Position numbers and translations under genes: made by a program. The notes below the pieces were generated by a model. The model was not told the DNA's origin and searched no databases. It saw only the letters and a program-made list of their open reading frames with translations. A stretch of 36,553 bases of DNA from Gemmatimonadota bacterium (GTDB taxonomy: Bacteria > Gemmatimonadota > Gemmatimonadetes > Gemmatimonadales > Gemmatimonadaceae): positions 1 through 36,553 of the forward strand of contig CANHTA010000011.1 in NCBI GenBank assembly GCA_947463135.1, in the 5' to 3' direction. Every line of letters begins with the position of its first letter. Within the stretch, counting starts at the first letter, position 1. This document shows positions 5,835-15,475 of the stretch, piece by piece.

Positions 5835-6631
5835 CCCGTATCTGGTGGCCCCTCCTGATTGTGACCACCGCCTTCGCGTGTGGTGCCTCGGCAGACCGCG
5901 CGCAACGCGGCCCGTCAGAGACCGTGGGCGTTGGCCAGGACACCATTGGCCCAGCCGCGCCACCAGGCGCTCCTGCCGACCGCTTCCCGGCTCCAATGCG
6001 ACCGGTGGCGGACATTGTGGCCCCCCGGTGGAGCGCCGAGGACGACCGCGATGATGCCGGGGAATTCGCGCGCGTGGTGGCCCTGGCAAAAATCCGCCCC
6101 GGACAGCAGGTGGCCGATATCGGCGCGGGCGACGGCTACTACGTCTCCCGGCTGTCGCCGCTGGTCGGCCCACGCGGCCGGGTCTTCGGCCAGGACATTA
6201 TCCCCGACTATCTCGCGCTGCTGCAGCGCCGCGTGCGCCGCGAGGGGATGGCGAACGTGCAGGTGGTACAGGGCGATGCCCACGATCCACGGCTACCGAC
6301 GGCCAGCGTTGACGTGGCCTTCATGATTCACATGTATCACGAGATCGAGCAACCGTTCGCGCTGCTCTGGAACCTGGCCACCGCCTTACGGCCGGGTGGA
6401 CGTCTGGTGATCCTTGATCTGGACCGCCCAACCTATGGCCACGGGACGCCGCGAAGCCTGTTGCGCTGCGAGTTAGCGGCCGTGGGCTATCGCCAGCTGT
6501 CGTTGACCACCACGGCCCCGGCCGAGTATGTGGCCGTCTTTGTCGCGCCGGACTCGGCATCTCGACCGGCGCCGGCCGCGATCACGGCTGCGCTCGGAGC
6601 ATCGCCCTGCCGGGCGCCGGGGGACCGCTAA
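5831..6631 (+). CDS. Class I SAM-dependent methyltransferase with exported or lipoprotein-like N-terminus
   Basis: A 266-residue protein whose residues about 75-235 form a Rossmann methyltransferase. It has the SAM motif VADIGAGDGYY, an acidic residue after the second strand (GQDIIPDY), VVQGDAHDPRLP, and a late GGRLVILDLDRP strand typical of UbiE/Methyltransf_11 proteins. The N-terminus ([20 protein letters not shown]) looks like a Sec signal with Cys17 at a possible lipobox, although the -3 residue is Ala rather than Leu. A Pro/Ala/Gly-rich linker follows. If exported it would lie outside the cytoplasm, where SAM is not expected, so this is odd. Its ATG overlaps the previous stop as ATGA, and the ArfB-like gene follows one base after its stop. 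Substrate is unknown. Confidence 0.85.
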   Translation: MTRIWWPLLIVTTAFACGASADRAQRGPSETVGVGQDTIGPAAPPGAPADRFPAPMRPVADIVAPRWSAEDDRDDAGEFARVVALAKIRPGQQVADIGAGDGYYVSRLSPLVGPRGRVFGQDIIPDYLALLQRRVRREGMANVQVVQGDAHDPRLPTASVDVAFMIHMYHEIEQPFALLWNLATALRPGGRLVILDLDRPTYGHGTPRSLLRCELAAVGYRQLSLTTTAPAEYVAVFVAPDSASRPAPAAITAALGASPCRAPGDR

Positions 6632-6632
6632 G

Positions 6633-7070
6633 GTGAGCACCACGTCGCCGGATGACGTGCCCGTGGCGCCGGGCGTGCGTATTCCGGCGCACGAGCTCGA
6701 CATCTCGGCCATTTCCGCCAGCGGGCCGGGGGGACAACATGTGAATCGCAGCGCCACGCGCATTGCGCTGCGGTGGAACGTACGCCAAAGCCGGGCACTC
6801 CGGGACGACCAACGGGTGCTGGTCCTGGCGCGCCTCGCGTCGCGGCTGGACGGGGAAGGCGCGCTGCGTATCGTGGCCGGCGAGTATCGGAGTCAACAGC
6901 AGAACCGCCGGGCAGCGATTGAGCGATTGGTGCAGCTCCTCTCGCGGGCGCTCGTGGTTCCGAAGTCGCGTCACGCCACTCGGCCGAGCCGAGGCGCGGT
7001 GGAGCGTCGGCTTAGCGAGAAGCGGCAGCGCAGTGAGGTGAAGCGGCAACGACGACCCGACGACCTGTAG
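6633..7070 (+). CDS. arfB: ArfB/YaeJ-like peptidyl-tRNA hydrolase (RF-1 GGQ domain)
   Basis: A 145-residue protein with a single class-I release-factor catalytic domain. The motif SASGPGGQHVN puts GGQ at residues 33-35; the Gln-containing loop hydrolyses peptidyl-tRNA in the ribosome. The C-terminal tail is strongly basic (RLSEKRQRSEVKRQRR), matching the tail by which ArfB enters the empty mRNA channel of stalled ribosomes. It lacks the stop-codon-recognition domains of RF1/RF2. I chose GTG at 6633, one base after the preceding TAA, because it gives a normal ArfB length; the open frame upstream has no conserved sequence. GGQ is followed by His where Asn is more usual. The gene ends convergently 29 bases from the beta-barrel gene. 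Confidence 0.88.
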   Translation: MSTTSPDDVPVAPGVRIPAHELDISAISASGPGGQHVNRSATRIALRWNVRQSRALRDDQRVLVLARLASRLDGEGALRIVAGEYRSQQQNRRAAIERLVQLLSRALVVPKSRHATRPSRGAVERRLSEKRQRSEVKRQRRPDDL

Positions 7071-7099: not shown

Positions 7100-7843
7100 C
7101 TAGAAGGCGATCACGTTGACGCCAAGATAGTACGTCACGAAATCGGCACGGCCTTCAATCGCTACGGGGGGCCGGTCTGTTTGATAGGCCGTCCGGACAC
7201 GATCGGCGTTCAGGTAGCTGACATCGTCGTGGCGCAGGAACCTGGCGCCAAGATCCAGGCGAACCGGATGCGCTCCGGAGGTCAGGCGAAAGTATCCACC
7301 AACCGCCCCACCGTAGGCCAACGCCACATCACTCGCGTTGGTAGTGGTGGCAAAGGGGTCCTGCTGATTGTTGGATCCTTCAATGGAACTCGACGTCCAG
7401 AACACGGAGAATCCACCCAGGGCGGTGGCGTATGGCGTAAACGTGCCCGTGGGGCCGAGCAGCTGCGGACCGACGACAAACGAAGCGATGCTGCTGGTGG
7501 TCCGCAGGTTGAGTTGAATGAGCCCACCGGTTCCACTCAGCGGGATGGCGCGTCGGGTGTTCCCATAGGTAACGAAGGAGAGATCGCCGCGCAGATTAAC
7601 GATGGCATTGGGATCGAGCCGCCACAGGGCGTACCCGCCAACGCCGAACCCGTTACCAGTATTTTGACCGAACTCCCCTCTGGGCTCGGTAACCTGCAGA
7701 TGGCCCCCGAACGACCCGCGACCGGAAGGGGCGCCGGCCGCCGCGGAAGATTGTGCGCCAGCAGGACCGGCCAGCAGTGCCGCCGCGAGGGCCGAAATGA
7801 TGGCCGCCGTGGCAGCCGAAGAAGGAAGGGAAACGCGAGTCAT
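7100..7843 (-). CDS. Predicted outer-membrane beta-barrel protein, function unknown
   Basis: A 247-residue protein with a clear Sec signal peptide (MTRVSLPSS, then an Ala-rich hydrophobic core ending AGPAGAQ at about residue 30). The mature part has alternating amphipathic strands rich in Gly, Ser, Thr and aromatic residues, such as GVGGYALWRL and SFVVGPQLLG, and ends with aromatic Phe (YYLGVNVIAF). This is typical of 8-10-stranded outer-membrane barrels. I recognise no specific family. ATG at 7843 was chosen because it starts the signal peptide; the frame extends to 7924 but the added residues do not resemble a signal. There is no clear Shine-Dalgarno. It is monocistronic and converges on arfB. 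Confidence 0.78.
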   Translation of the reverse strand: MTRVSLPSSAATAAIISALAAALLAGPAGAQSSAAAGAPSGRGSFGGHLQVTEPRGEFGQNTGNGFGVGGYALWRLDPNAIVNLRGDLSFVTYGNTRRAIPLSGTGGLIQLNLRTTSSIASFVVGPQLLGPTGTFTPYATALGGFSVFWTSSSIEGSNNQQDPFATTTNASDVALAYGGAVGGYFRLTSGAHPVRLDLGARFLRHDDVSYLNADRVRTAYQTDRPPVAIEGRADFVTYYLGVNVIAF

Positions 7844-8028
7844 GGATGGGAGCGTTGAAGCGCCAGTAGGCACACGCCTCAGGATCACGGAATGCAATCC
7901 GGAGTTCCTGCAAGAATACGCCAAAGTGGGGGAAAGGTGTCGTACATTACGGGAAATGCCAGCGCCTCGACCACGTGGCGACCCGTACCGCTTGAATCCC
8001 GACTAGTTATTTCGTATTTGTTCAGCTT

Positions 8029-8591: not shown

Positions 8592-10814
8592 ATGTCGGCT
8601 CAAGCCACTCGTGTAAACCAGCTCGTCTCCGCGGCCCTCGGCCTCGATGTTGAACAGGGGCGCTGGCGCGCATTAACGCGTCAGATTTCTCCCGATGATC
8701 CGCTGCCGGTGCGCGTGCGTTCCATCGGTGGTGCGGTCGACGTCGGCTATCTCGATCGCTCCATCACGCACGATACGCTGCGCCTCGCCATTGCCGAGGG
8801 GACCGTACCGATTGTCTTGCTGGATGTGCTGCATGACGATGCCATCGTGTTGTGCCGGAATGAGGAGGAGGAGGTCCACGCCGTTCTTGTGCCACGGGAT
8901 GGGGACGCGGTGACCCTCCCGGAGCGCGGCGACGCGCTGGCTAATGCGCTGATTGCCCGGTTAGGGGTGGGAGATCTTCTCACGGCGCTGGCGCCCATGG
9001 CGCTGCGACCGGCGAATAGCGCCACGTCGCGGGCCAACCCCCACAGTCCACTCGGGCACGCGCCGCATGAAGACGACAGCGAACCCCGATCCCCCCTCGA
9101 TCGCACGCTGGCGCTGTTCGCCCGTGAGCGCCGCGAGATTCTCACGGTGTTCTTCTACGCCACGCTGTCGGGGGGATTGAGCCTAATCCTGCCGCTCGCC
9201 GTGGGCGGCATCGTTCAGATTGTGCAGGGGCGTTTGTACCTGCAGCCCGTGATTGTCCTCATTTCCTTCGTGGTACTCGGCACTATCGTCGCCGGCGTGC
9301 TGCAGATCGGCATTTTGAAAGTGGTGGAGCGCATTCAGCAGCGTGTCTTCGCGAGAATGGCGTTGGAGTTTGCCTTCCGCATTCCGCGCTTACGCTACGC
9401 CGCGTCTTTGGAGTCTAATCTGCCCGAACAGATGAACCGCCTGTTCGAAGCGATCGCGATTCAGAAGGGGGTGCAGAAGCTGTTGTTGGACGTGCCGACG
9501 GCGCTGCTCACGATTGTGTTCAGCCTGCTGCTGCTCACGCTCTACAGTCCGTGGTTCTCGGTGTTCGCGGTCGCGGTGTCGGCGGCGCTCTGGTTCATTA
9601 TCCGCTGGTCGGGCCCGGAGGGGCTTGAGACCTCGATTGTGGAGTCGAAGTACAAGTACAAGGCCGTGCACTGGCTGCAGGAAATCGCCCGCGCGTTTCA
9701 CGCGTTTAAGTATGCCGGGGACTCCACGCTGCCCGTGGAGCGCATGGACGACGTGGTCACGGGCTATCTCAAGTATCGCCGCAAGCATTTCGCGGTGCTC
9801 GTGAAGCAAACCATTGCCCTGATCGGCTTCAAAACGTTTATCACCGCGGCTGTGCTGATCATCGGCGCGACGTTGGTGCAAACCAACCAGCTTCTCCTTG
9901 GTCAGTTTGTGGCGGCCGAGGTGGTGATTGTCACCGTGCTGGCCGGCGTTGAGAAGCTCATTACCAGCCTGGCGACAGTGTACGATGTGCTTACCAGCGT
10001 CGACAAATCAGGCCACGTGGCGGACCTGCCACTGGAAGCGCGCGGCGGCCTTGCGCCGGTGCACGTCCCGGGCGTCGGTGTCTCCATTGCTACCAAGGAT
10101 CTCCGGTTTCGCTATCCCTCGGCACGTTCGGCCAGCATTGACGGCATCTCCGTGCAGATTGAGCCAGGCGAACGCGTTGCCATTATGGGGTCCGACGGAT
10201 CCGGCCAGTCCACGCTGCTGAAGCTGCTGGGGGGGCTCATCGACGAGTACGACGGGTCGATCCGGTTTGACGGCGTGACGCTGCGCGATCTCGATCGCCC
10301 TGCCCTACGCACGCGGATCGGACAGATGTTGTCGTGGACCGACCTGTTCGACGGGACGGTTGAGGAAAACGTGAGCGTGGGTCGGTCGCACATTACGCCA
10401 CGCGATGTCCGCGAAGCGCTGGATGACCTCCTGCTGACCGACGACATCCAACAGCTGCCGCAAGGGATTCAAACCGAACTCTCCAACGGAGGGCGCACCC
10501 TCCCCGCGCATCTCGCGAACAAGTTGCTCGTGGCACAAGGCATCGTCGGACGTCCCCGGCTCATTGTGCTCGACGACTTCTTCCAGAATCTCGATGCCGC
10601 CTCGCGCACGCTCATCATAGGGTTGCTCACCGACCGCAGTCGCCCGTGGACGGTCATTGCCGTGTCACACGATCCACAACTGCTTGCCGTGTTCGATCGC
10701 GTGTTGCTCATCGATCGGGGACAAATCGTGCGCGAAGGACCCTTCAGCGTGCTGCGTGACGATCCGATGTGTCGCAATCTGCTGCACGAGTCGCCTATGA
10801 CCACGGGAGCCTGA
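8592..10814 (+). CDS. ABC transporter (type-I-secretion-like) with degenerate nucleotide-binding domain
   Basis: A 740-residue fused membrane and ATP-binding protein. Residues 1-170 form an N-terminal domain of unknown type with no visible C39 peptidase motif. About 185-440 hold the transmembrane region (helices around LSLILPLAVGGIVQI, PVIVLISFVVLGTIVAG and LLTIVFSLLLLTLY). About 490-740 form the ABC domain. Walker A reads GSDGSGQST, with Gln539 where Lys is expected. The LSGGQ signature is replaced by LSNGG (630-634), and the usual Glu after Walker B is Asp662 (IVLDDFF). H-loop His693 (AVSHD) is intact. Adaptor and TolC genes follow in one operon, so it is probably the inner-membrane part of an envelope-spanning exporter. 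The family resembles HlyB/LapB-type permeases. Start ATG 8592 was chosen to give a soluble N-domain; no Shine-Dalgarno is evident. Confidence 0.88.
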   Translation: MSAQATRVNQLVSAALGLDVEQGRWRALTRQISPDDPLPVRVRSIGGAVDVGYLDRSITHDTLRLAIAEGTVPIVLLDVLHDDAIVLCRNEEEEVHAVLVPRDGDAVTLPERGDALANALIARLGVGDLLTALAPMALRPANSATSRANPHSPLGHAPHEDDSEPRSPLDRTLALFARERREILTVFFYATLSGGLSLILPLAVGGIVQIVQGRLYLQPVIVLISFVVLGTIVAGVLQIGILKVVERIQQRVFARMALEFAFRIPRLRYAASLESNLPEQMNRLFEAIAIQKGVQKLLLDVPTALLTIVFSLLLLTLYSPWFSVFAVAVSAALWFIIRWSGPEGLETSIVESKYKYKAVHWLQEIARAFHAFKYAGDSTLPVERMDDVVTGYLKYRRKHFAVLVKQTIALIGFKTFITAAVLIIGATLVQTNQLLLGQFVAAEVVIVTVLAGVEKLITSLATVYDVLTSVDKSGHVADLPLEARGGLAPVHVPGVGVSIATKDLRFRYPSARSASIDGISVQIEPGERVAIMGSDGSGQSTLLKLLGGLIDEYDGSIRFDGVTLRDLDRPALRTRIGQMLSWTDLFDGTVEENVSVGRSHITPRDVREALDDLLLTDDIQQLPQGIQTELSNGGRTLPAHLANKLLVAQGIVGRPRLIVLDDFFQNLDAASRTLIIGLLTDRSRPWTVIAVSHDPQLLAVFDRVLLIDRGQIVREGPFSVLRDDPMCRNLLHESPMTTGA

Positions 10815-10819
10815 GCACC

Positions 10820-12181
10820 ATGGCCCGCACGGATATTGATATTGAGCGCGAGCTCAAACACTTGCCCTTAGAGACCACCTCCCTGCTCGGTGAAGCCAAC
10901 GCCATTCGCATTGTGTCGCGATGGCTGGCCGGCATTCTCATCACGCTGTTCCTCGTGTTGTTCCTGCCGTGGCAGCAGAATGTCCGCGGCGAGGGAACGG
11001 TCACGGCGCTCGACCCCGCCCATCGTCCGCAAGAGTTGCCCACGCGCATCGATGGCCGCATCGAGCAGTGGTACGTGCAGGAAGGGCAGTACGTCAATGA
11101 GGGGGACAGCATCGTCAGAATCTCCGAGATCAAGGAGGAGTATCTGAATCCGAGCGTGCTCCCGCTTACGGCTCAGCAACAGTCCGCCAAGGAATCGGCG
11201 ATCGGCGAGAAGCAGAACAAAGCGGCTGCGCTCACCATGCAGATCTCCCAGCTTGAAGCACAGCGTGACTTCAAACTGCGGCAGACCGCCAACAAGATTG
11301 AGCAGTACCGCGCCGAAGTGCGCCAAGCCACACTCGAAGACTCCGTGGCGCGCGACCAGCTGCGCCGCCGCGAGCGGTTGTTCCGGGACACCCTCGGCCT
11401 CGTCTCGGTGAATGAGCTGCAGGCCTTTCAGATTCGTGTGCAGTCGGCCTCCGCCAAACTGGTGGAGAAGCAACAGGCGCTACTCATCACGGAAACCGAT
11501 CTCTCCAGCATTCCGGCGGAGTACGGCGAGAAGATCTCCAAGTCGCAATCCGATCGTGCCTCCACATTGGCCGAGGTGAGCGAGGGCCGTGCCGAGGTGG
11601 CCAAGCTGCGGGACAAAGTCGGCTCGTTAACCATCCGGAACGGCTTCTACCTCATTCGGGCGCCGCAGGATGGCTATGTGGTCCGCGCCACCAAAGCGGG
11701 TCAGGGAGAGATCGTGAAGGCTGGCGAGCCCATCGTCACCATTCAGCCGGCACGGCCCAGCAAAGCCGTTGAGCTCTTTGTGAAGCCGATGGACGTGGCC
11801 CTGCTCAAGCCGGGGCGGCATGTGCGGATCTTTTTTGACGGTTGGCCCGCGCTGCAGATTTCGGGATGGCCGCAAGTCGCATCCGGCACCTTTGGGGCGC
11901 AGGTGGCCGTGATTGACCAGTTCCCCAATCGGGCGGGGCAGTTCCGCGTGCTGCTCGTGCCTGATACCACCCACGACGAACCGTGGCCGGCGCAGCTGCG
12001 GCTCGGTACCGGGGTTCAGGGATGGGCGATGCTCGACAATGTCACGGTCGGCTGGGAAATCTGGCGTCAGCTCAACGGATTCCCGCTCTCCATTAATCCG
12101 AACGATGCGTTGCCAGCCGATGCCGTTGCCGGGGGGAAGGGTGGCGGCGCAGCCAGCGCCAAGGGTGGAGGCAAGAAGTGA
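10820..12181 (+). CDS. HlyD-family periplasmic adaptor (membrane fusion protein)
   Basis: A 453-residue adaptor that should link the ABC protein to the TolC-type channel. A cytoplasmic N-terminus is followed by one transmembrane helix (about 35-57, GILITLFLVLFLPW). A lipoyl-like half-motif follows (GRIEQWYVQEGQYVNEGDSI). Residues about 115-270 form a long Gln/Glu/Lys/Ala-rich coiled-coil hairpin. The second lipoyl half (IRAPQDGYVVRATKAGQGEIVKAG with IVTIQPA) and beta-barrel domains come next. The C-terminus is an odd Gly/Lys-rich tail (GGKGGGAASAKGGGKK). ATG at 10820 lies 5 bases after the ABC stop with GGGAG upstream, and its TGA overlaps the next GTG. A longer upstream frame overlapping the ABC gene is less likely. 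Confidence 0.92.
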   Translation: MARTDIDIERELKHLPLETTSLLGEANAIRIVSRWLAGILITLFLVLFLPWQQNVRGEGTVTALDPAHRPQELPTRIDGRIEQWYVQEGQYVNEGDSIVRISEIKEEYLNPSVLPLTAQQQSAKESAIGEKQNKAAALTMQISQLEAQRDFKLRQTANKIEQYRAEVRQATLEDSVARDQLRRRERLFRDTLGLVSVNELQAFQIRVQSASAKLVEKQQALLITETDLSSIPAEYGEKISKSQSDRASTLAEVSEGRAEVAKLRDKVGSLTIRNGFYLIRAPQDGYVVRATKAGQGEIVKAGEPIVTIQPARPSKAVELFVKPMDVALLKPGRHVRIFFDGWPALQISGWPQVASGTFGAQVAVIDQFPNRAGQFRVLLVPDTTHDEPWPAQLRLGTGVQGWAMLDNVTVGWEIWRQLNGFPLSINPNDALPADAVAGGKGGGAASAKGGGKK

Positions 12182-13638
12182 TCAGGCGTGGGCGTACGGC
12201 GCTCGCGTTCGGGTTGTCCGTGGTCTTCTCGGCGTCACTACAGGCCCAGGCACCGGTCGCACCCACGCGGCTCGATACCTTGGGCACCCCGTTCCCATTT
12301 CCGGCCTTTGTTGACGGCATTCTCGCGCATCACCCGGTTGCCTCGCAGGCACGCTTGGTGGCCGATCAGGCACGCGCGGACCTGCGCACCGCGTGGGGGG
12401 CATTTGACCCCACGGTCACCGCAACGTGGGATCAGAAGAAGTTCGGCGGGACCACGTACTACAACTACTTCGACGCCGAGCTCAAGATTCCGCTCCCCGT
12501 TGGTGCTGACGTCACGCTGGCGTTTGACCGAACGATGGGCCGGTACTTCAATCCCGACCGCCGCACCGCCGGCGCTGGCACCTTCGAAGCGGGCATTTCT
12601 ATTCCGCTTGGTCAGCGCATTCTCACCGACGAGCGGCGCAATGCGCTGCAGCAGGCGCGCGCGGCGCGTGACGCCGGAGAGGCGGACCGCACGGCGATCG
12701 TGAACAAGCTGCTCTTCTCCGCCGCGAAGGACTACGGCGTCTGGTACGAAAGCTGGCGTCGGCGCGTGATTGCCCAGGAGGGCGAAGCGCTGGCCGAGTT
12801 CCGGTTGCAGGCCATTCGCCGGCGGGTGGCGAACGGGGAAAGCGCGCCCATTGATACAATCGAAGCGTTGTTGGAGCTGCAGCGCCGCGAGGTCACCCGC
12901 TTTGAAGCCGAAGCGTCCTTTTACCTGTCGTCGCTCAATGTGACTGCCTACCTCTGGGATGAGGCTGGACGCCCGGCGCCGTTGCCTGCCGACGCCAAAC
13001 CGGTGCTGCTCGGTATTGACCGCGTTGGGATGGATTCCACCCGACTTGAGGCGCTCCTTGAGTTGGCGACCCGGCGCAATCCGGACTTGCTCAAAATTCA
13101 AGCGCGCGTGAAACAGGCCGAAGCGCAGCGCTTGTTCACCACCCAAGCGTTGCTCCCGCTGGCCGAGGCGAAGCTCTCAGGCTTTGGGTCCAACGAGAGC
13201 GAGCAGGCGTTTTTTGACGACGACCGGCTCAGCAACAACTACAAGGCCGGCCTCAGCATTAAGTCGCCGCTCCTCTTTCTGCGGGAGACGGGCCGTTTTT
13301 CGGCGGCCGGTCAACGCTTGGAGTTCCAACGACTGGAGCGGGATCGGCTTCGGCGCGACGTCGAGTTTGATACGCGGGTGGCCATCTTTGATTTGTTCAA
13401 CCTCGAACGGCTGCGGCAACGACAGGTGGCGAACGTGCGCAATGCCAGTCTGCTGCGCGATGCGGAACAGATACGATTTGAGAATGGCGAGAGCACCCTC
13501 CTCATTCTGAACATCCGCGAGCGGCTGGTGTTGGACGAAGCGGTGAAACTCGCGGCCGTTGAAGCCAAGGTGGCCGGCGCCCGCGCCGCGCTGGCGGTGG
13601 CAACCGGAGACCGGACGCTGCTGTTGAATCGAAACTAG
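12178..13638 (+). CDS. TolC-family outer-membrane channel protein
   Basis: A 486-residue protein with an N-terminal signal peptide (MIRRGRTALAFGLSVVFSAS, cleaved near LQAQ). Two repeats of long alpha-helical hairpins follow, rich in Ala, Glu, Gln, Arg and Leu (for example QARAARDAGEADRTAIVNKL and IQARVKQAEAQRLFTTQALL). They alternate with strand segments carrying Phe/Gly/Asn. This is the architecture of the trimeric TolC channel that spans the outer membrane and periplasm. GTG at 12178 overlaps the adaptor stop as GTGA, indicating translational coupling. It completes an ABC-adaptor-channel set. No cargo gene is evident, apart from the uncertain small secreted protein at 8029-8439, whose Sec signal is not typical of type I substrates. 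Confidence 0.9.
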   Translation: MIRRGRTALAFGLSVVFSASLQAQAPVAPTRLDTLGTPFPFPAFVDGILAHHPVASQARLVADQARADLRTAWGAFDPTVTATWDQKKFGGTTYYNYFDAELKIPLPVGADVTLAFDRTMGRYFNPDRRTAGAGTFEAGISIPLGQRILTDERRNALQQARAARDAGEADRTAIVNKLLFSAAKDYGVWYESWRRRVIAQEGEALAEFRLQAIRRRVANGESAPIDTIEALLELQRREVTRFEAEASFYLSSLNVTAYLWDEAGRPAPLPADAKPVLLGIDRVGMDSTRLEALLELATRRNPDLLKIQARVKQAEAQRLFTTQALLPLAEAKLSGFGSNESEQAFFDDDRLSNNYKAGLSIKSPLLFLRETGRFSAAGQRLEFQRLERDRLRRDVEFDTRVAIFDLFNLERLRQRQVANVRNASLLRDAEQIRFENGESTLLILNIRERLVLDEAVKLAAVEAKVAGARAALAVATGDRTLLLNRN

Positions 13639-13701: not shown

Positions 13702-14010
13702 ATGCGTGATCACGACGATTGGGAGCTACCGGATGACGCCGAGGGGGGCGACGACGGCCACGAGGACGACCTCGACGACGAGTTCCCCCTTGGAGACAGC
13801 GTCGCCGATGTGGTGGGCGACGTCCACTGCCCGTACTGCGGAGAGCCGGGTGAGATCACCCTCGACCCCGGCTCGGGCATGCATCAGCAGTACATCGAGG
13901 ACTGTCAGGTATGCTGCCGTCCGTGGCTGGTGTCCGTGAGCTACGATGACGAGGGCACGGCCCACGTGCACGTTGATGCCAGCGACGACCATGAGGATTA
14001 CGATGGCTGA
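13702..14010 (+). CDS. CPXCG-motif cysteine-rich small protein
   Basis: A 102-residue acidic protein. Its first 40 residues are mostly Asp/Glu (DDAEGGDDGHEDDLDDE). A zinc-ribbon-like core follows: HCPYCGEPGEI then CQVCCRPW, giving the two Cys pairs of the CPXCG family (PF14255-type), whose role is unknown. It ends with another acidic run (DASDDHEDYDG). A metal-binding fold is inferred from the Cys pairs. The known family members are usually about 60 residues, so the long acidic N-terminus is an extension. It is the first gene of a tight four-gene set and its 3' end overlaps the CHAD-CYTH gene by 8 bases. Confidence 0.85.
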   Translation: MRDHDDWELPDDAEGGDDGHEDDLDDEFPLGDSVADVVGDVHCPYCGEPGEITLDPGSGMHQQYIEDCQVCCRPWLVSVSYDDEGTAHVHVDASDDHEDYDG

Positions 14011-15475
14011 GCGGGCAAACCTCAGCGCGGACGACGTACGTGCACTGCTGCCGGACGCCCTTCGCCGACCAGCGCAGGAAGGGGCTCGGCTTATGGCGCT
14101 GCATTGGCTCGCGCAGCTCAGCGAGGCGCGAGCCCAGTGGTCGGACAGCGAAATCACTGATGGGGTGCGAACGACATCGGGACGCAACACCGCCGTACTG
14201 CACCGCGCGCGCGTAGCGTTGCGACGACTCCGCGCCGTGCTCCGCGAGCATGAGAGTGCCCTCGACAACGCCGTAGACCGGCGCACGCTGCGTGCCTTGC
14301 GTGCGTTGGGGCAGGCCACCAACACCGCGCGGGATGCCGATGTCCAGCGCGCCTGGCTTGATGCGGAAGCCGAACAGCTTCCCGCAGCGGCGCGCGACGA
14401 AGCCATGCAACTGCGCGCCACGCTCAACGAGGGCGCGGCGCGCTCAGCCCCGGCGATCACCCGCGCATTCGCCAAGCATTTTGACCCCATCGTCGATCAC
14501 CTCGGCGGTCGTCTCTCCACGTATCGCCTGTTGCATCGCGTGGGCGTGCCATCCACGCCAACGCCATTCGCCCGGCATCTCGCCACGCGGGTCGAACGCG
14601 TTGGCGCCCGACTGCGACGTGATCTGGAACGCGTGACCAGTGTGGAGGCACGTGACGCCATGCACCGGGTGCGCATTCGACTCAAGCGTCAGCGTGCCAT
14701 GCTGGCGCCGTTTGCCAGATCGCGACCGGCCCTTGGTGCCTGGTATGATCTCGCCACGCGCGGTCAGGATCTCCTGGGTGCCGTGCGCGATGCCGATCTC
14801 TTGGCGGAGCGCGCGCGCAAGGCCGATCTCCCCGCCTTGCAGCACGCGTTGGAAGCGGTGGCCCTCGCGCACTATCAGGCGTTTGCGCTTGATTGGTGTG
14901 CGCGCATGGACCACGTCATGCACACCATTGCGCTGTCCGTGGTTGAGCTGCGGCGCGACAGTGCCCCCGTTACCGATGCCGGGGTCCCACTGGAGATTGA
15001 GCGGAAGTATCTCCTCACCGCGGTGCCACCCGTTGCGGCCGAGGTGCCCCCCACCCTCATCGAGCAGGGGTGGATCCCGGGAACGGCGCTGCGTGAGCGC
15101 TTGCGTCGGTCCACCACACCCGGTGGGGCGGTGTCCTGTTGGCGCACGGTGAAACTCGGTCCGGCGCAGGCGCGCATAGAAATTGAGGAAGCCACCAGCC
15201 GCGACCTGTTCGAGGCCATGTGGCCCCTCACTGTGGCGGCCCGTGTCCACAAGCACCGGCATGTGGTGCGGGACGGCGCCTATCAGTGGGAGATCGACGT
15301 GTTCCGTGATCGTGATCTGGTGTTGGCTGAAGTGGAGCTCTCCGGCTTGGATGATCACCCTGCACTTCCCGCTTGGCTTGCACCCTATGTGGAACGTGAC
15401 GTCACGGGCGAGCCGGCCTACTTCAACGCCGTCCTGGCGAGCGCTGCCCACCCGCTTCCGCACGCCGGCTCATGA
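14003..15475 (+). CDS. CHAD-CYTH fusion protein (polyphosphate-linked), inverted domain order
   Basis: A 490-residue two-domain protein. Residues about 20-310 are a CHAD domain: all-helical, Arg/His-rich, with duplicated conserved His-containing helices (LHRARVALRRLRAVL and MHRVRIRLKRQRAML). CHAD domains bind inorganic polyphosphate. Residues about 328-480 form a CYTH triphosphate-tunnel domain, starting LEIERKYLL, so the ExExK motif is Glu331, Glu333, Lys335. Later Arg/Lys/Glu strands follow (RLRRSTTPG, KLGPAQARIEIEE, WEIDVF, LAEVELSG). In most fusions I know CYTH precedes CHAD; here the order is reversed. ATG at 14003 was chosen because GAGGA lies 6 bases upstream. Its stop overlaps the next gene by ATGA. 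A role in polyphosphate or nucleotide-triphosphate metabolism is inferred. Confidence 0.9.
   Translation: MAERANLSADDVRALLPDALRRPAQEGARLMALHWLAQLSEARAQWSDSEITDGVRTTSGRNTAVLHRARVALRRLRAVLREHESALDNAVDRRTLRALRALGQATNTARDADVQRAWLDAEAEQLPAAARDEAMQLRATLNEGAARSAPAITRAFAKHFDPIVDHLGGRLSTYRLLHRVGVPSTPTPFARHLATRVERVGARLRRDLERVTSVEARDAMHRVRIRLKRQRAMLAPFARSRPALGAWYDLATRGQDLLGAVRDADLLAERARKADLPALQHALEAVALAHYQAFALDWCARMDHVMHTIALSVVELRRDSAPVTDAGVPLEIERKYLLTAVPPVAAEVPPTLIEQGWIPGTALRERLRRSTTPGGAVSCWRTVKLGPAQARIEIEEATSRDLFEAMWPLTVAARVHKHRHVVRDGAYQWEIDVFRDRDLVLAEVELSGLDDHPALPAWLAPYVERDVTGEPAYFNAVLASAAHPLPHAGS

What the first reader, a model, noticed from the sequence alone, without database searches (positions are those of the whole stretch)
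8592..13638. Type-I-secretion-like operon whose ABC subunit lacks canonical ATPase residues
The ABC domain (8592-10814) reads GSDGSGQST at Walker A, with Gln539 replacing the lysine that contacts the ATP phosphates. The LSGGQ signature is LSNGG (630-634), and the catalytic Glu after Walker B is Asp662. The H-loop His693 is intact. The gene has no frameshift and is coupled to adaptor and TolC genes, so it looks maintained rather than decayed. Either this is a family trait with a different catalytic logic, or the ABC domain is not a usual ATPase.
Basis: partly seen in the sequence, partly recalled or inferred. Interest (0 to 1): 0.72.

Follow-up and report, generated by a model that had tools for sequence, protein, structure and literature searches.

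The report
ABC exporter family without working ATPase
A three-part bacterial export machine that should run on ATP belongs to a widespread family whose ATP-burning part is altered beyond its usual chemistry, and in some relatives is missing altogether, so it probably runs on something else.

Summary
Window 8592-10814 encodes an exporter whose nucleotide-binding domain (NBD) lacks the Walker A Lys (Gln539) and the Walker B Glu (Asp662). The Q-loop Gln is also lost (Ser581). None of 22 genus orthologues has Lys (7 Gln, 15 Arg), and the NBD is under purifying selection: a family trait, not decay or assembly error.

A transmembrane-only profile found the family in six phyla, usually beside HlyD and TolC genes (Nitrospirota often differ). 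Of 217 aligned proteins, 0 have all six catalytic residues (10 of 10 ordinary exporters do) and 4 have no NBD. Two Bacteroidota orders list 70 NBD-less genes in 68 genomes; the 40 read all run straight into HlyD and TolC genes and form one clade.

Best reading: a type-I-secretion-derived tripartite exporter not powered by its own ATP hydrolysis. Gemmatimonadota keep a non-catalytic NBD; some Bacteroidota lost it. SbmA is a proton-driven precedent for the fold without NBD. Energy source and cargo are unknown.

The parts
8592..10814 (+). ABC-exporter-like protein (740 aa) with degenerate NBD
8592..9005 (+). N-terminal C39-like domain (residues 1-138); no Cys in the first 80 residues
   Evidence: AlphaFold pLDDT 91.8; best Foldseek match 3b79, C39-like domain of a Vibrio toxin-secretion ABC protein, TMq 0.58, E 0.004, with 0 matches at E 0.001 or better; no Pfam match
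9093..10061 (+). transmembrane domain (residues 168-490), the conserved core of the family
   Evidence: A2 profile; dN/dS 0.032
9918..9920 (+). Glu443 in predicted TM6, 94% of 217 family proteins and 40 of 40 NBD-less proteins, 0 of 10 ordinary exporters
10080..10757 (+). degenerate nucleotide-binding domain (residues 497-722)
10188..10214 (+). Walker A GSDGSGQST (533-541), Gln539 for Lys
10332..10334 (+). Q-loop position, Ser581 for Gln
10473..10493 (+).
10500..10514 (+). true ABC signature position, LPAHL (637-641) for LSGGQ
10572..10577 (+). Walker B Asp661-Asp662 (Asp for the catalytic Glu)
10668..10670 (+). H-loop His693, retained
10820..12181 (+). HlyD-type periplasmic adaptor (frame open from 10769)
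12178..13638 (+). TolC-type outer-membrane channel, GTG start overlapping the adaptor stop by 4 bp

Best explanation
The 8592-13638 operon encodes a tripartite envelope exporter that descends from type I secretion but is not powered by ATP hydrolysis in its own NBD. SHOWN by sequence: the inner-membrane subunit has an ABC-exporter TMD, a C39-like domain, and an NBD in which Walker A Lys, Q-loop Gln, signature and catalytic Glu are all replaced; these replacements are fixed in the genus sample and the gene is under purifying selection; the same TMD family occurs in six phyla, usually with HlyD and TolC genes, with an NBD that is never fully canonical in the proteins aligned and is absent in one Bacteroidota clade. 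INFERRED: a homodimer of the TMD is the inner gate, docked on an HlyD ring and a TolC exit duct. The remaining NBD in Gemmatimonadota is a folded structural, nucleotide-sensing or cargo/adaptor-contacting module, dispensable in evolution. The work comes from another source, most likely the proton-motive force as in SbmA, perhaps through conserved TMD acidic residues (Glu443 in TM6, Glu246), or from a cargo gradient. The cargo is unknown.
For: Motif loss in 22 of 22 genus orthologues. 0 of 217 family proteins carry all six catalytic residues against 10 of 10 ordinary exporters; 4 of 217 have no NBD. In two Bacteroidota orders 52 of 84 matches and 18 of 137 have NBD-less frames; 40 of these 70 were read, and in 40 of 40 the TMD frame stops 0-5 aa after the TMD profile, an HlyD match starts 1-90 bp after the frame end, and TolC follows. 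In clusters of neighbouring proteins only TMD, HlyD and TolC recur in 40 of 40 of these loci. The 40 are diverse (pairwise TMD identity 42-98%, mean 63%) yet keep Glu443, Glu246, Lys292, Lys296, Ser352, Lys355, Asp386, Arg396 and His399 in 40 of 40, and lie on one side of a branch in a tree with 64 other rows (SH-aLRT 99), so the NBD-less form has persisted and diversified. The window's TMD is more constrained than its NBD: dN/dS 0.032 against 0.100. SbmA precedent (PMC13316013, passages).
Against: No direct evidence of transport, of an energy source or of a cargo. 10 of 217 members keep 5 of 6 catalytic residues (2 Vampirovibrio-type, 8 Bacteroidota) and may hydrolyse ATP. Walker A Lys is kept in 147 of 213 NBD-bearing members (sum over), so its loss is lineage-specific. 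The Gemmatimonas NBD and its motif codons are under purifying selection (dN/dS 0.10 and 0.05), so the domain does something, possibly with nucleotide. In Nitrospirota the NBD is as conserved as the TMD (0.564 against 0.551), and HlyD lies downstream in only 2 of 31 loci. The conserved charges may serve structure rather than proton coupling; SbmA lost its coupling helices, while these proteins keep many coupling-loop residues, though three otherwise conserved positions (361, 406, 428) have drifted. A trans-acting NBD encoded elsewhere is not excluded.
Confidence: 0.64

Rival explanations
1. It is the degenerate half of a heteromeric exporter: an ordinary ABC half-exporter encoded elsewhere pairs with it and hydrolyses ATP, as in TAP, TM287/288 or Pdr5-type asymmetric pumps.
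For: Degenerate sites with a replaced Walker A Lys are known in asymmetric ABC pumps (ABCG5/G8 Lys to Arg; Pdr5 Lys to Cys; passages of PMC7756269). The window genome has many other ABC domains (50 matches). Some Nitrospirota loci carry two family genes in tandem.
Against: Only one family member in the window genome and no second ABC gene seen in the operon. Walker A/B and signature are both lost here, so any mixed dimer would have no fully canonical site. Tandem Nitrospirota copies are both degenerate. NBD-less proteins could pair with an ordinary half only to give a one-NBD dimer; 39 of 40 such loci have no other NBD frame within the locus.
Confidence: 0.14
2. The NBD is still an ATPase with altered chemistry: Gln or Arg does part of the Lys job and Asp662 with His693 supports slow hydrolysis.
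For: H-loop His kept in 44 of 48, Walker B Asp in 48 of 48 and an A-loop aromatic residue in 48 of 48 Gemmatimonadota proteins. Motif codons constrained (dN/dS 0.05). Near-canonical relatives exist (10 of 217 with 5 of 6).
Against: Four elements are lost together, including the whole signature; 4 of 22 genus orthologues have Asn at the H-loop; NBD-less relatives keep the operon.
Confidence: 0.1
3. It is not a pump but a gated or passive conduit or an envelope tether: the TMD anchors an HlyD-TolC bridge, and the NBD, where present, is a nucleotide sensor or scaffold.
For: The trio is maintained without a recurring further gene in 40 of 40 NBD-less loci; the TMD shows strong constraint in Gemmatimonas.
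Against: Family-specific charged residues within the TMD are conserved, and ABC-fold TMDs without NBDs are known to pump (SbmA, PMC13316013, passages). No test here separates gate from pump.
Confidence: 0.17
4. Assembly or sequencing error, or a decaying gene.
For: Draft genome of 294 contigs.
Against: 22 of 22 genus genomes with the gene lack Lys; no stop inside the 22 orthologous matches; dN/dS 0.03-0.10 over TMD and NBD.
Confidence: 0.01

Closest known systems
Type I secretion system HlyB/HlyD/TolC (PDB 8dck, 7sgr)
   Same: Same three parts; top Foldseek match of the full model is HlyB of the HlyB/D complex (8dck, E 1.5e-28); the N-terminal domain resembles C39-like domains; adaptor and channel match Pfam HlyD_3 and OEP above cut-off.
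   Different: HlyB is a working ATPase (established knowledge); here catalytic motifs are replaced and in relatives the NBD is gone. NCBIfam T1SS models score below their cut-offs for all three proteins (ABC 186.8 of 693.1, adaptor 78.6 of 208.65, channel 38.9 of 225.15 bits). No RTX cargo gene was recognised among the neighbours scanned.
SbmA/BacA (SLiPT) peptide transporters
   Same: An ABC-exporter-fold TMD that works without an NBD; proton-driven, with conserved glutamates (PMC13316013, passages).
   Different: SbmA is proposed to derive from YddA, imports peptides and lost its coupling helices; that it has no HlyD/TolC operon is recalled. NBD-less proteins here match ABC_membrane PF00664 (two of three tested above its cut-off) and no SbmA family, and keep coupling-loop residues.
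Degenerate-site ABC exporters (TAP, TM287/288, Pdr5, ABCG5/G8)
   Same: Replaced Walker A, Walker B or signature residues in natural pumps (PMC7756269, passages; PMC8277102, passages).
   Different: Those keep one canonical site in an asymmetric pump; here no partner is encoded in the operon and whole-NBD loss occurs in relatives.
PCAT/NHLM bacteriocin exporters (TIGR03796, TIGR03797)
   Same: Among the closest curated models for the TMD of NBD-less members and for the window protein.
   Different: Scores are far below the cut-off (TIGR03796: 38-51 of 853.3 bits in four NBD-less members; 176.8 for the window protein); no Cys at the expected peptidase position in the window protein (read from the sequence).

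Membership tests
Type I secretion system | Operon of ABC-type inner-membrane protein, HlyD adaptor and TolC channel | tested here: met
   Window. Family loci with enough sequence: HlyD downstream in 31 of 31 Gemmatimonadota, 44 of 45 Bacteroidota, 2 of 2 Cyanobacteriota, 2 of 31 Nitrospirota; adjacent in 3 of 3 Pseudomonadota and 4 of 4 Planctomycetota loci mapped
Type I secretion system | Canonical ATP-hydrolysing NBD | tested here: not met
   Gln539, Ser581, LPAHL, Asp662; 0 of 217 family members canonical. This tests the residues; hydrolysis itself is not testable here
Type I secretion system | Cargo with RTX or double-glycine signal encoded nearby | tested here: inconclusive
   None recognised among the 20 window proteins and the relatives' neighbours scanned with Pfam; not every neighbour was scanned and genome-wide cargo was not searched
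ABC exporter (type IV fold) | ABC_membrane TMD and ABC_tran NBD folds | tested here: met
   PF00664 28.6 bits (cut-off 28), PF00005 62.6 bits (cut-off 25); Foldseek
ABC exporter (type IV fold) | At least one canonical ATP site in the working dimer | tested here: inconclusive
   Not met for a homodimer; single family copy in the genome, but a trans partner of another family cannot be excluded
SbmA/BacA (SLiPT) | SbmA/BacA sequence family | tested here: not met
   No SbmA family among Pfam matches up to E 1 for three NBD-less members nor for the window protein at 0.001
SbmA/BacA (SLiPT) | Proton-driven transport without NBD through a glutamate ladder | not testable with these tools
   NBD absence shown for relatives; conserved acidic residues seen; coupling to protons needs an assay

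The most novel reading that the evidence does not exclude
A secondary-active (proton- or gradient-driven) counterpart of type I secretion: an ABC-derived TMD plus HlyD plus TolC that exports cargo across both membranes in one step with no ATPase, evolved through NBD degeneration and, in one Bacteroidota clade, complete NBD loss. It would be a second origin of NBD-independent transport in the ABC-exporter fold besides SbmA, and a tripartite one.
Probability: 0.38. Interest if true: 0.92.

Novelty: new variant of a known kind. Interest (0 to 1): 0.83.

Why it matters
ATP hydrolysis by the NBD is taken as the defining motor of ABC exporters and of type I secretion. A widespread family that keeps the transmembrane core, adaptor and channel while the motor degenerates or is lost offers natural intermediates (near-canonical, degenerate, NBD-less) for asking how a primary pump becomes something else, and whether HlyD-TolC conduits can be driven without ATP. 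Because the window NBD still passes Pfam's ABC_tran cut-off, such proteins are likely to be annotated as ABC ATPases (inference), which would mislead counts of type I secretion systems in these phyla.

Tried and rejected
Rejected: (1) assembly error or decay. (2) LSNGG as the signature: it is the X-loop. (3) CHAD, S4 and other downstream genes as part of the system: syntenic in the genus; in L018-L023 some lie within the locus but in other places or strands, and none was found in the five Cyanobacteriota/Nitrospirota loci of the same call, L025, L027, L028, L030 and L031. (4) TetR as a universal partner: Pfam-confirmed for 3 of 3 upstream genes picked, but by profile only 13 of 47 NBD-bearing and 0 of 39 NBD-less Bacteroidota loci. 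(5) A simple rule 'NBD always more conserved than TMD in ordinary exporters': across 10 unrelated references NBD exceeded TMD in 97.8% of 45 pairs, but in six sets of related ordinary exporters only in 62 of 78 pairs, with two sets going the other way; so the inversion is strong only at larger divergence. (6) Structure comparison by VIA-align: library not available. (7) Paper searches for a description of this family: none recognised in the listings (one search showed 20 of 311); many subscription papers are not held.

Full report
What is there. The frame at 8592-10814 encodes 740 residues: a C39-like N-terminal domain (1-138), an ABC-exporter transmembrane domain (168-490) and an NBD (497-722). 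HlyD-type and TolC-type genes follow with a 5 bp gap and a 4 bp overlap. Pfam gives PF00664 just over and PF00005 well over its cut-off; NCBIfam T1SS models for the ABC protein, adaptor and channel are all below their cut-offs. AlphaFold folds the protein with mean pLDDT 81 (pTM 0.58), and the best solved match is HlyB of the HlyB/D complex. The N-terminal domain alone matches a C39-like domain best (3b79, E 0.004, TMq 0.58). The window lies in a draft genome of 3.55 Mb in 294 contigs; the closest homologues come from Gemmatimonadota genomes.

Motifs. Walker A is GSDGSGQST (Gln539), the Q-loop Gln is Ser581, the signature position is LPAHL, and the Walker B Glu is Asp662; His693 stays. In 22 genus orthologues (own plus 21) the Lys position is Gln in 7 and Arg in 15, 581 is Ser in 22, 662 is Asp in 22, and the H-loop is His in 18 and Asn in 4. 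Of the 24 same-genus genomes searched besides the window's own, three show no match above the level of ordinary ABC exporters (G002, G008, G018). In seven close orthologues (21 pairs) dN/dS is 0.032 for the TMD, 0.100 for the NBD, 0.050 for the NBD motif codons and 0.191 for the N-terminal domain.

Family. A profile of the TMD alone (18 rows) separates the family (E mostly below 1e-60) from ordinary exporters, the best of which scored E 2e-10 in the 16 genomes. Genomes with a match: 35 of 298 in the window's phylum, Gemmatimonadota, 29 of 148 Nitrospirota, 75 of 296 Bacteroidota, 7 of 349 Pseudomonadota, 10 of 146 Cyanobacteriota (one of these, the weakest, has in-frame stops) and 18 of 199 Planctomycetota. 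The last five phylum names rest on the named locus from which each search was centred. From 331 sequences 232 unique frames were found and 217 kept. Scored against 10 ordinary exporters from the same searches, 0 of 217 have all six of Walker A Lys, Q-loop Gln, signature Ser/Gly, Walker B Asp, catalytic Glu and H-loop His, while 10 of 10 references do; 10 have five; 4 have no NBD. Walker A Lys itself persists in 147 of the 213 NBD-bearing members, the catalytic Glu in 36, the Q-loop Gln in 9 and the H-loop His in 63 (sums over). Different lineages lost different residues.

Operon. Where enough sequence was held, HlyD lies downstream in 31 of 31 Gemmatimonadota, 44 of 45 Bacteroidota and 2 of 2 Cyanobacteriota loci, and TolC in 15 of 15, 15 of 17 and 2 of 2. 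Nitrospirota differ: HlyD downstream in 2 of 31 (on either side 8 of 31), TolC downstream in 0 and upstream in 6 of 11, often with two family genes in tandem. Pseudomonadota and Planctomycetota loci were too short; in the maps HlyD is adjacent in 3 of 3 and 4 of 4 (in one Planctomycetota locus TolC lies on the other side, in another only a short TolC piece was seen).

NBD-less members. Four Bacteroidota proteins of 334-349 aa end 1-5 residues after the TMD profile and are followed by HlyD and TolC genes. Two Bacteroidota orders were then searched: 81 of 171 genomes with 84 matches, of which 52 (51 genomes) have frames of 333-371 aa; and 128 of 167 genomes with 137 matches, of which 18 full TMD matches (17 genomes) have frames of 334-374 aa (partial matches in three genomes not counted). 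I counted these by eye from the listings; the first four are among them, so 70 genes in 68 genomes. Forty of the 70 loci were read: 40 of 40 have HlyD then TolC directly downstream; 1 of 40 (L341) has another NBD frame, at the locus edge on the other strand. Only the three trio genes recur in all 40. TMD identity among the 40 runs from 42 to 98%. In a tree of 104 TMDs the 40 NBD-less rows lie on one side of a branch (SH-aLRT 99); in the wider tree of 138 rows the four included lie beside an NBD-bearing Bacteroidota protein and near the Gemmatimonadota clade. One origin of the NBD-less form is thus compatible with the data. Nine charged or polar TMD and coupling-loop residues, Glu443 among them, are kept in 40 of 40, while positions 361, 406 and 428, conserved in NBD-bearing proteins, have drifted.

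Conservation pattern. Mean identity within phyla is higher for TMD than NBD in five groups (for example Bacteroidota 0.46 against 0.32, Planctomycetota 0.55 against 0.36), and about equal in Nitrospirota (0.55 against 0.56). Between phyla TMD exceeds NBD in 13 of 15 comparisons; the exceptions are Gemmatimonadota-Nitrospirota and Bacteroidota-Nitrospirota. Ten unrelated references show 0.22 against 0.48. Six sets of related ordinary exporters are mixed: NBD higher in 62 of 78 pairs, two sets lower. Glu443 is conserved in 94% of the 217 and in 0 of 10 references.

Mechanism. Loss of four catalytic elements here, and of the whole domain in relatives with intact trios, makes ATP hydrolysis by this NBD an unlikely motor (inference). 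The precedent for the fold without an NBD is SbmA, proton-driven, proposed to derive from an ABC transporter that lost NBD and coupling helices (PMC13316013, passages read). These proteins differ: they sit with HlyD and TolC, keep the coupling loops, and are not SbmA by Pfam. Proton coupling is therefore a proposal, not a result. A trans-acting partner remains possible: asymmetric ABC pumps tolerate very degenerate sites, with Walker A Lys to Arg in ABCG5/G8 and Lys to Cys in Pdr5 (PMC7756269, passages).

Literature. Searches for NBD-less or degenerate T1SS, and for T1SS in Gemmatimonas, showed no description in their listings. Passages of a review of tripartite efflux and T1SS (PMC8277102), of a survey of SbmA/BacA (PMC12003926) and of a HlyB domain-swap study (PMC11026475) were seen; none reports such a family in those passages.

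Noticed in passing
window 7100-7924 (-): A protein without Pfam match that reads like an outer-membrane beta-barrel (impression from its sequence) stays near the trio in farther Gemmatimonadota (L019, L021-L023), there downstream instead of upstream; it may be linked to it.
   Followed up: partly
window 13946-15475: CHAD domain (57-290) followed by a C-terminal stretch with EIERKY, which from memory resembles a CYTH/triphosphatase motif; Pfam found only CHAD.
   Followed up: no
L259 1544-5105, L260, L263 4931-8416: Nitrospirota carry two degenerate family genes in tandem, in L263 after HlyD and TolC; both copies lack catalytic residues.
   Followed up: partly
L264, L265, L268: Single Nitrospirota family genes with no recognised HlyD or TolC in the fetched stretch.
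   Followed up: no
G1739 (L362, L363, L364) and G1675 (L365, L368): Genomes carrying NBD-less and NBD-bearing copies together; a natural comparison.
   Followed up: no
L207 1429-3183: In a Pseudomonadota member the NBD region is no longer recognised by Pfam PF00005 (E 0.25) though the protein keeps its length.
   Followed up: partly
L341 (-) and 12 other NBD-less loci: A small (up to 122 aa) gene that looks like a membrane protein recurs about 0.5 kb upstream in 13 of 40 NBD-less loci; in L241 such a gene follows genes that look, unverified, like an RND pump and its adaptor.
   Followed up: partly
window 6528-7070: A small protein with GPGGQHVN, which from memory resembles a release-factor-like (ArfB-type) motif.
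   Followed up: no
L221 (G1116:C13): A Cyanobacteriota family copy with three in-frame stops, apparently a pseudogene.
   Followed up: no
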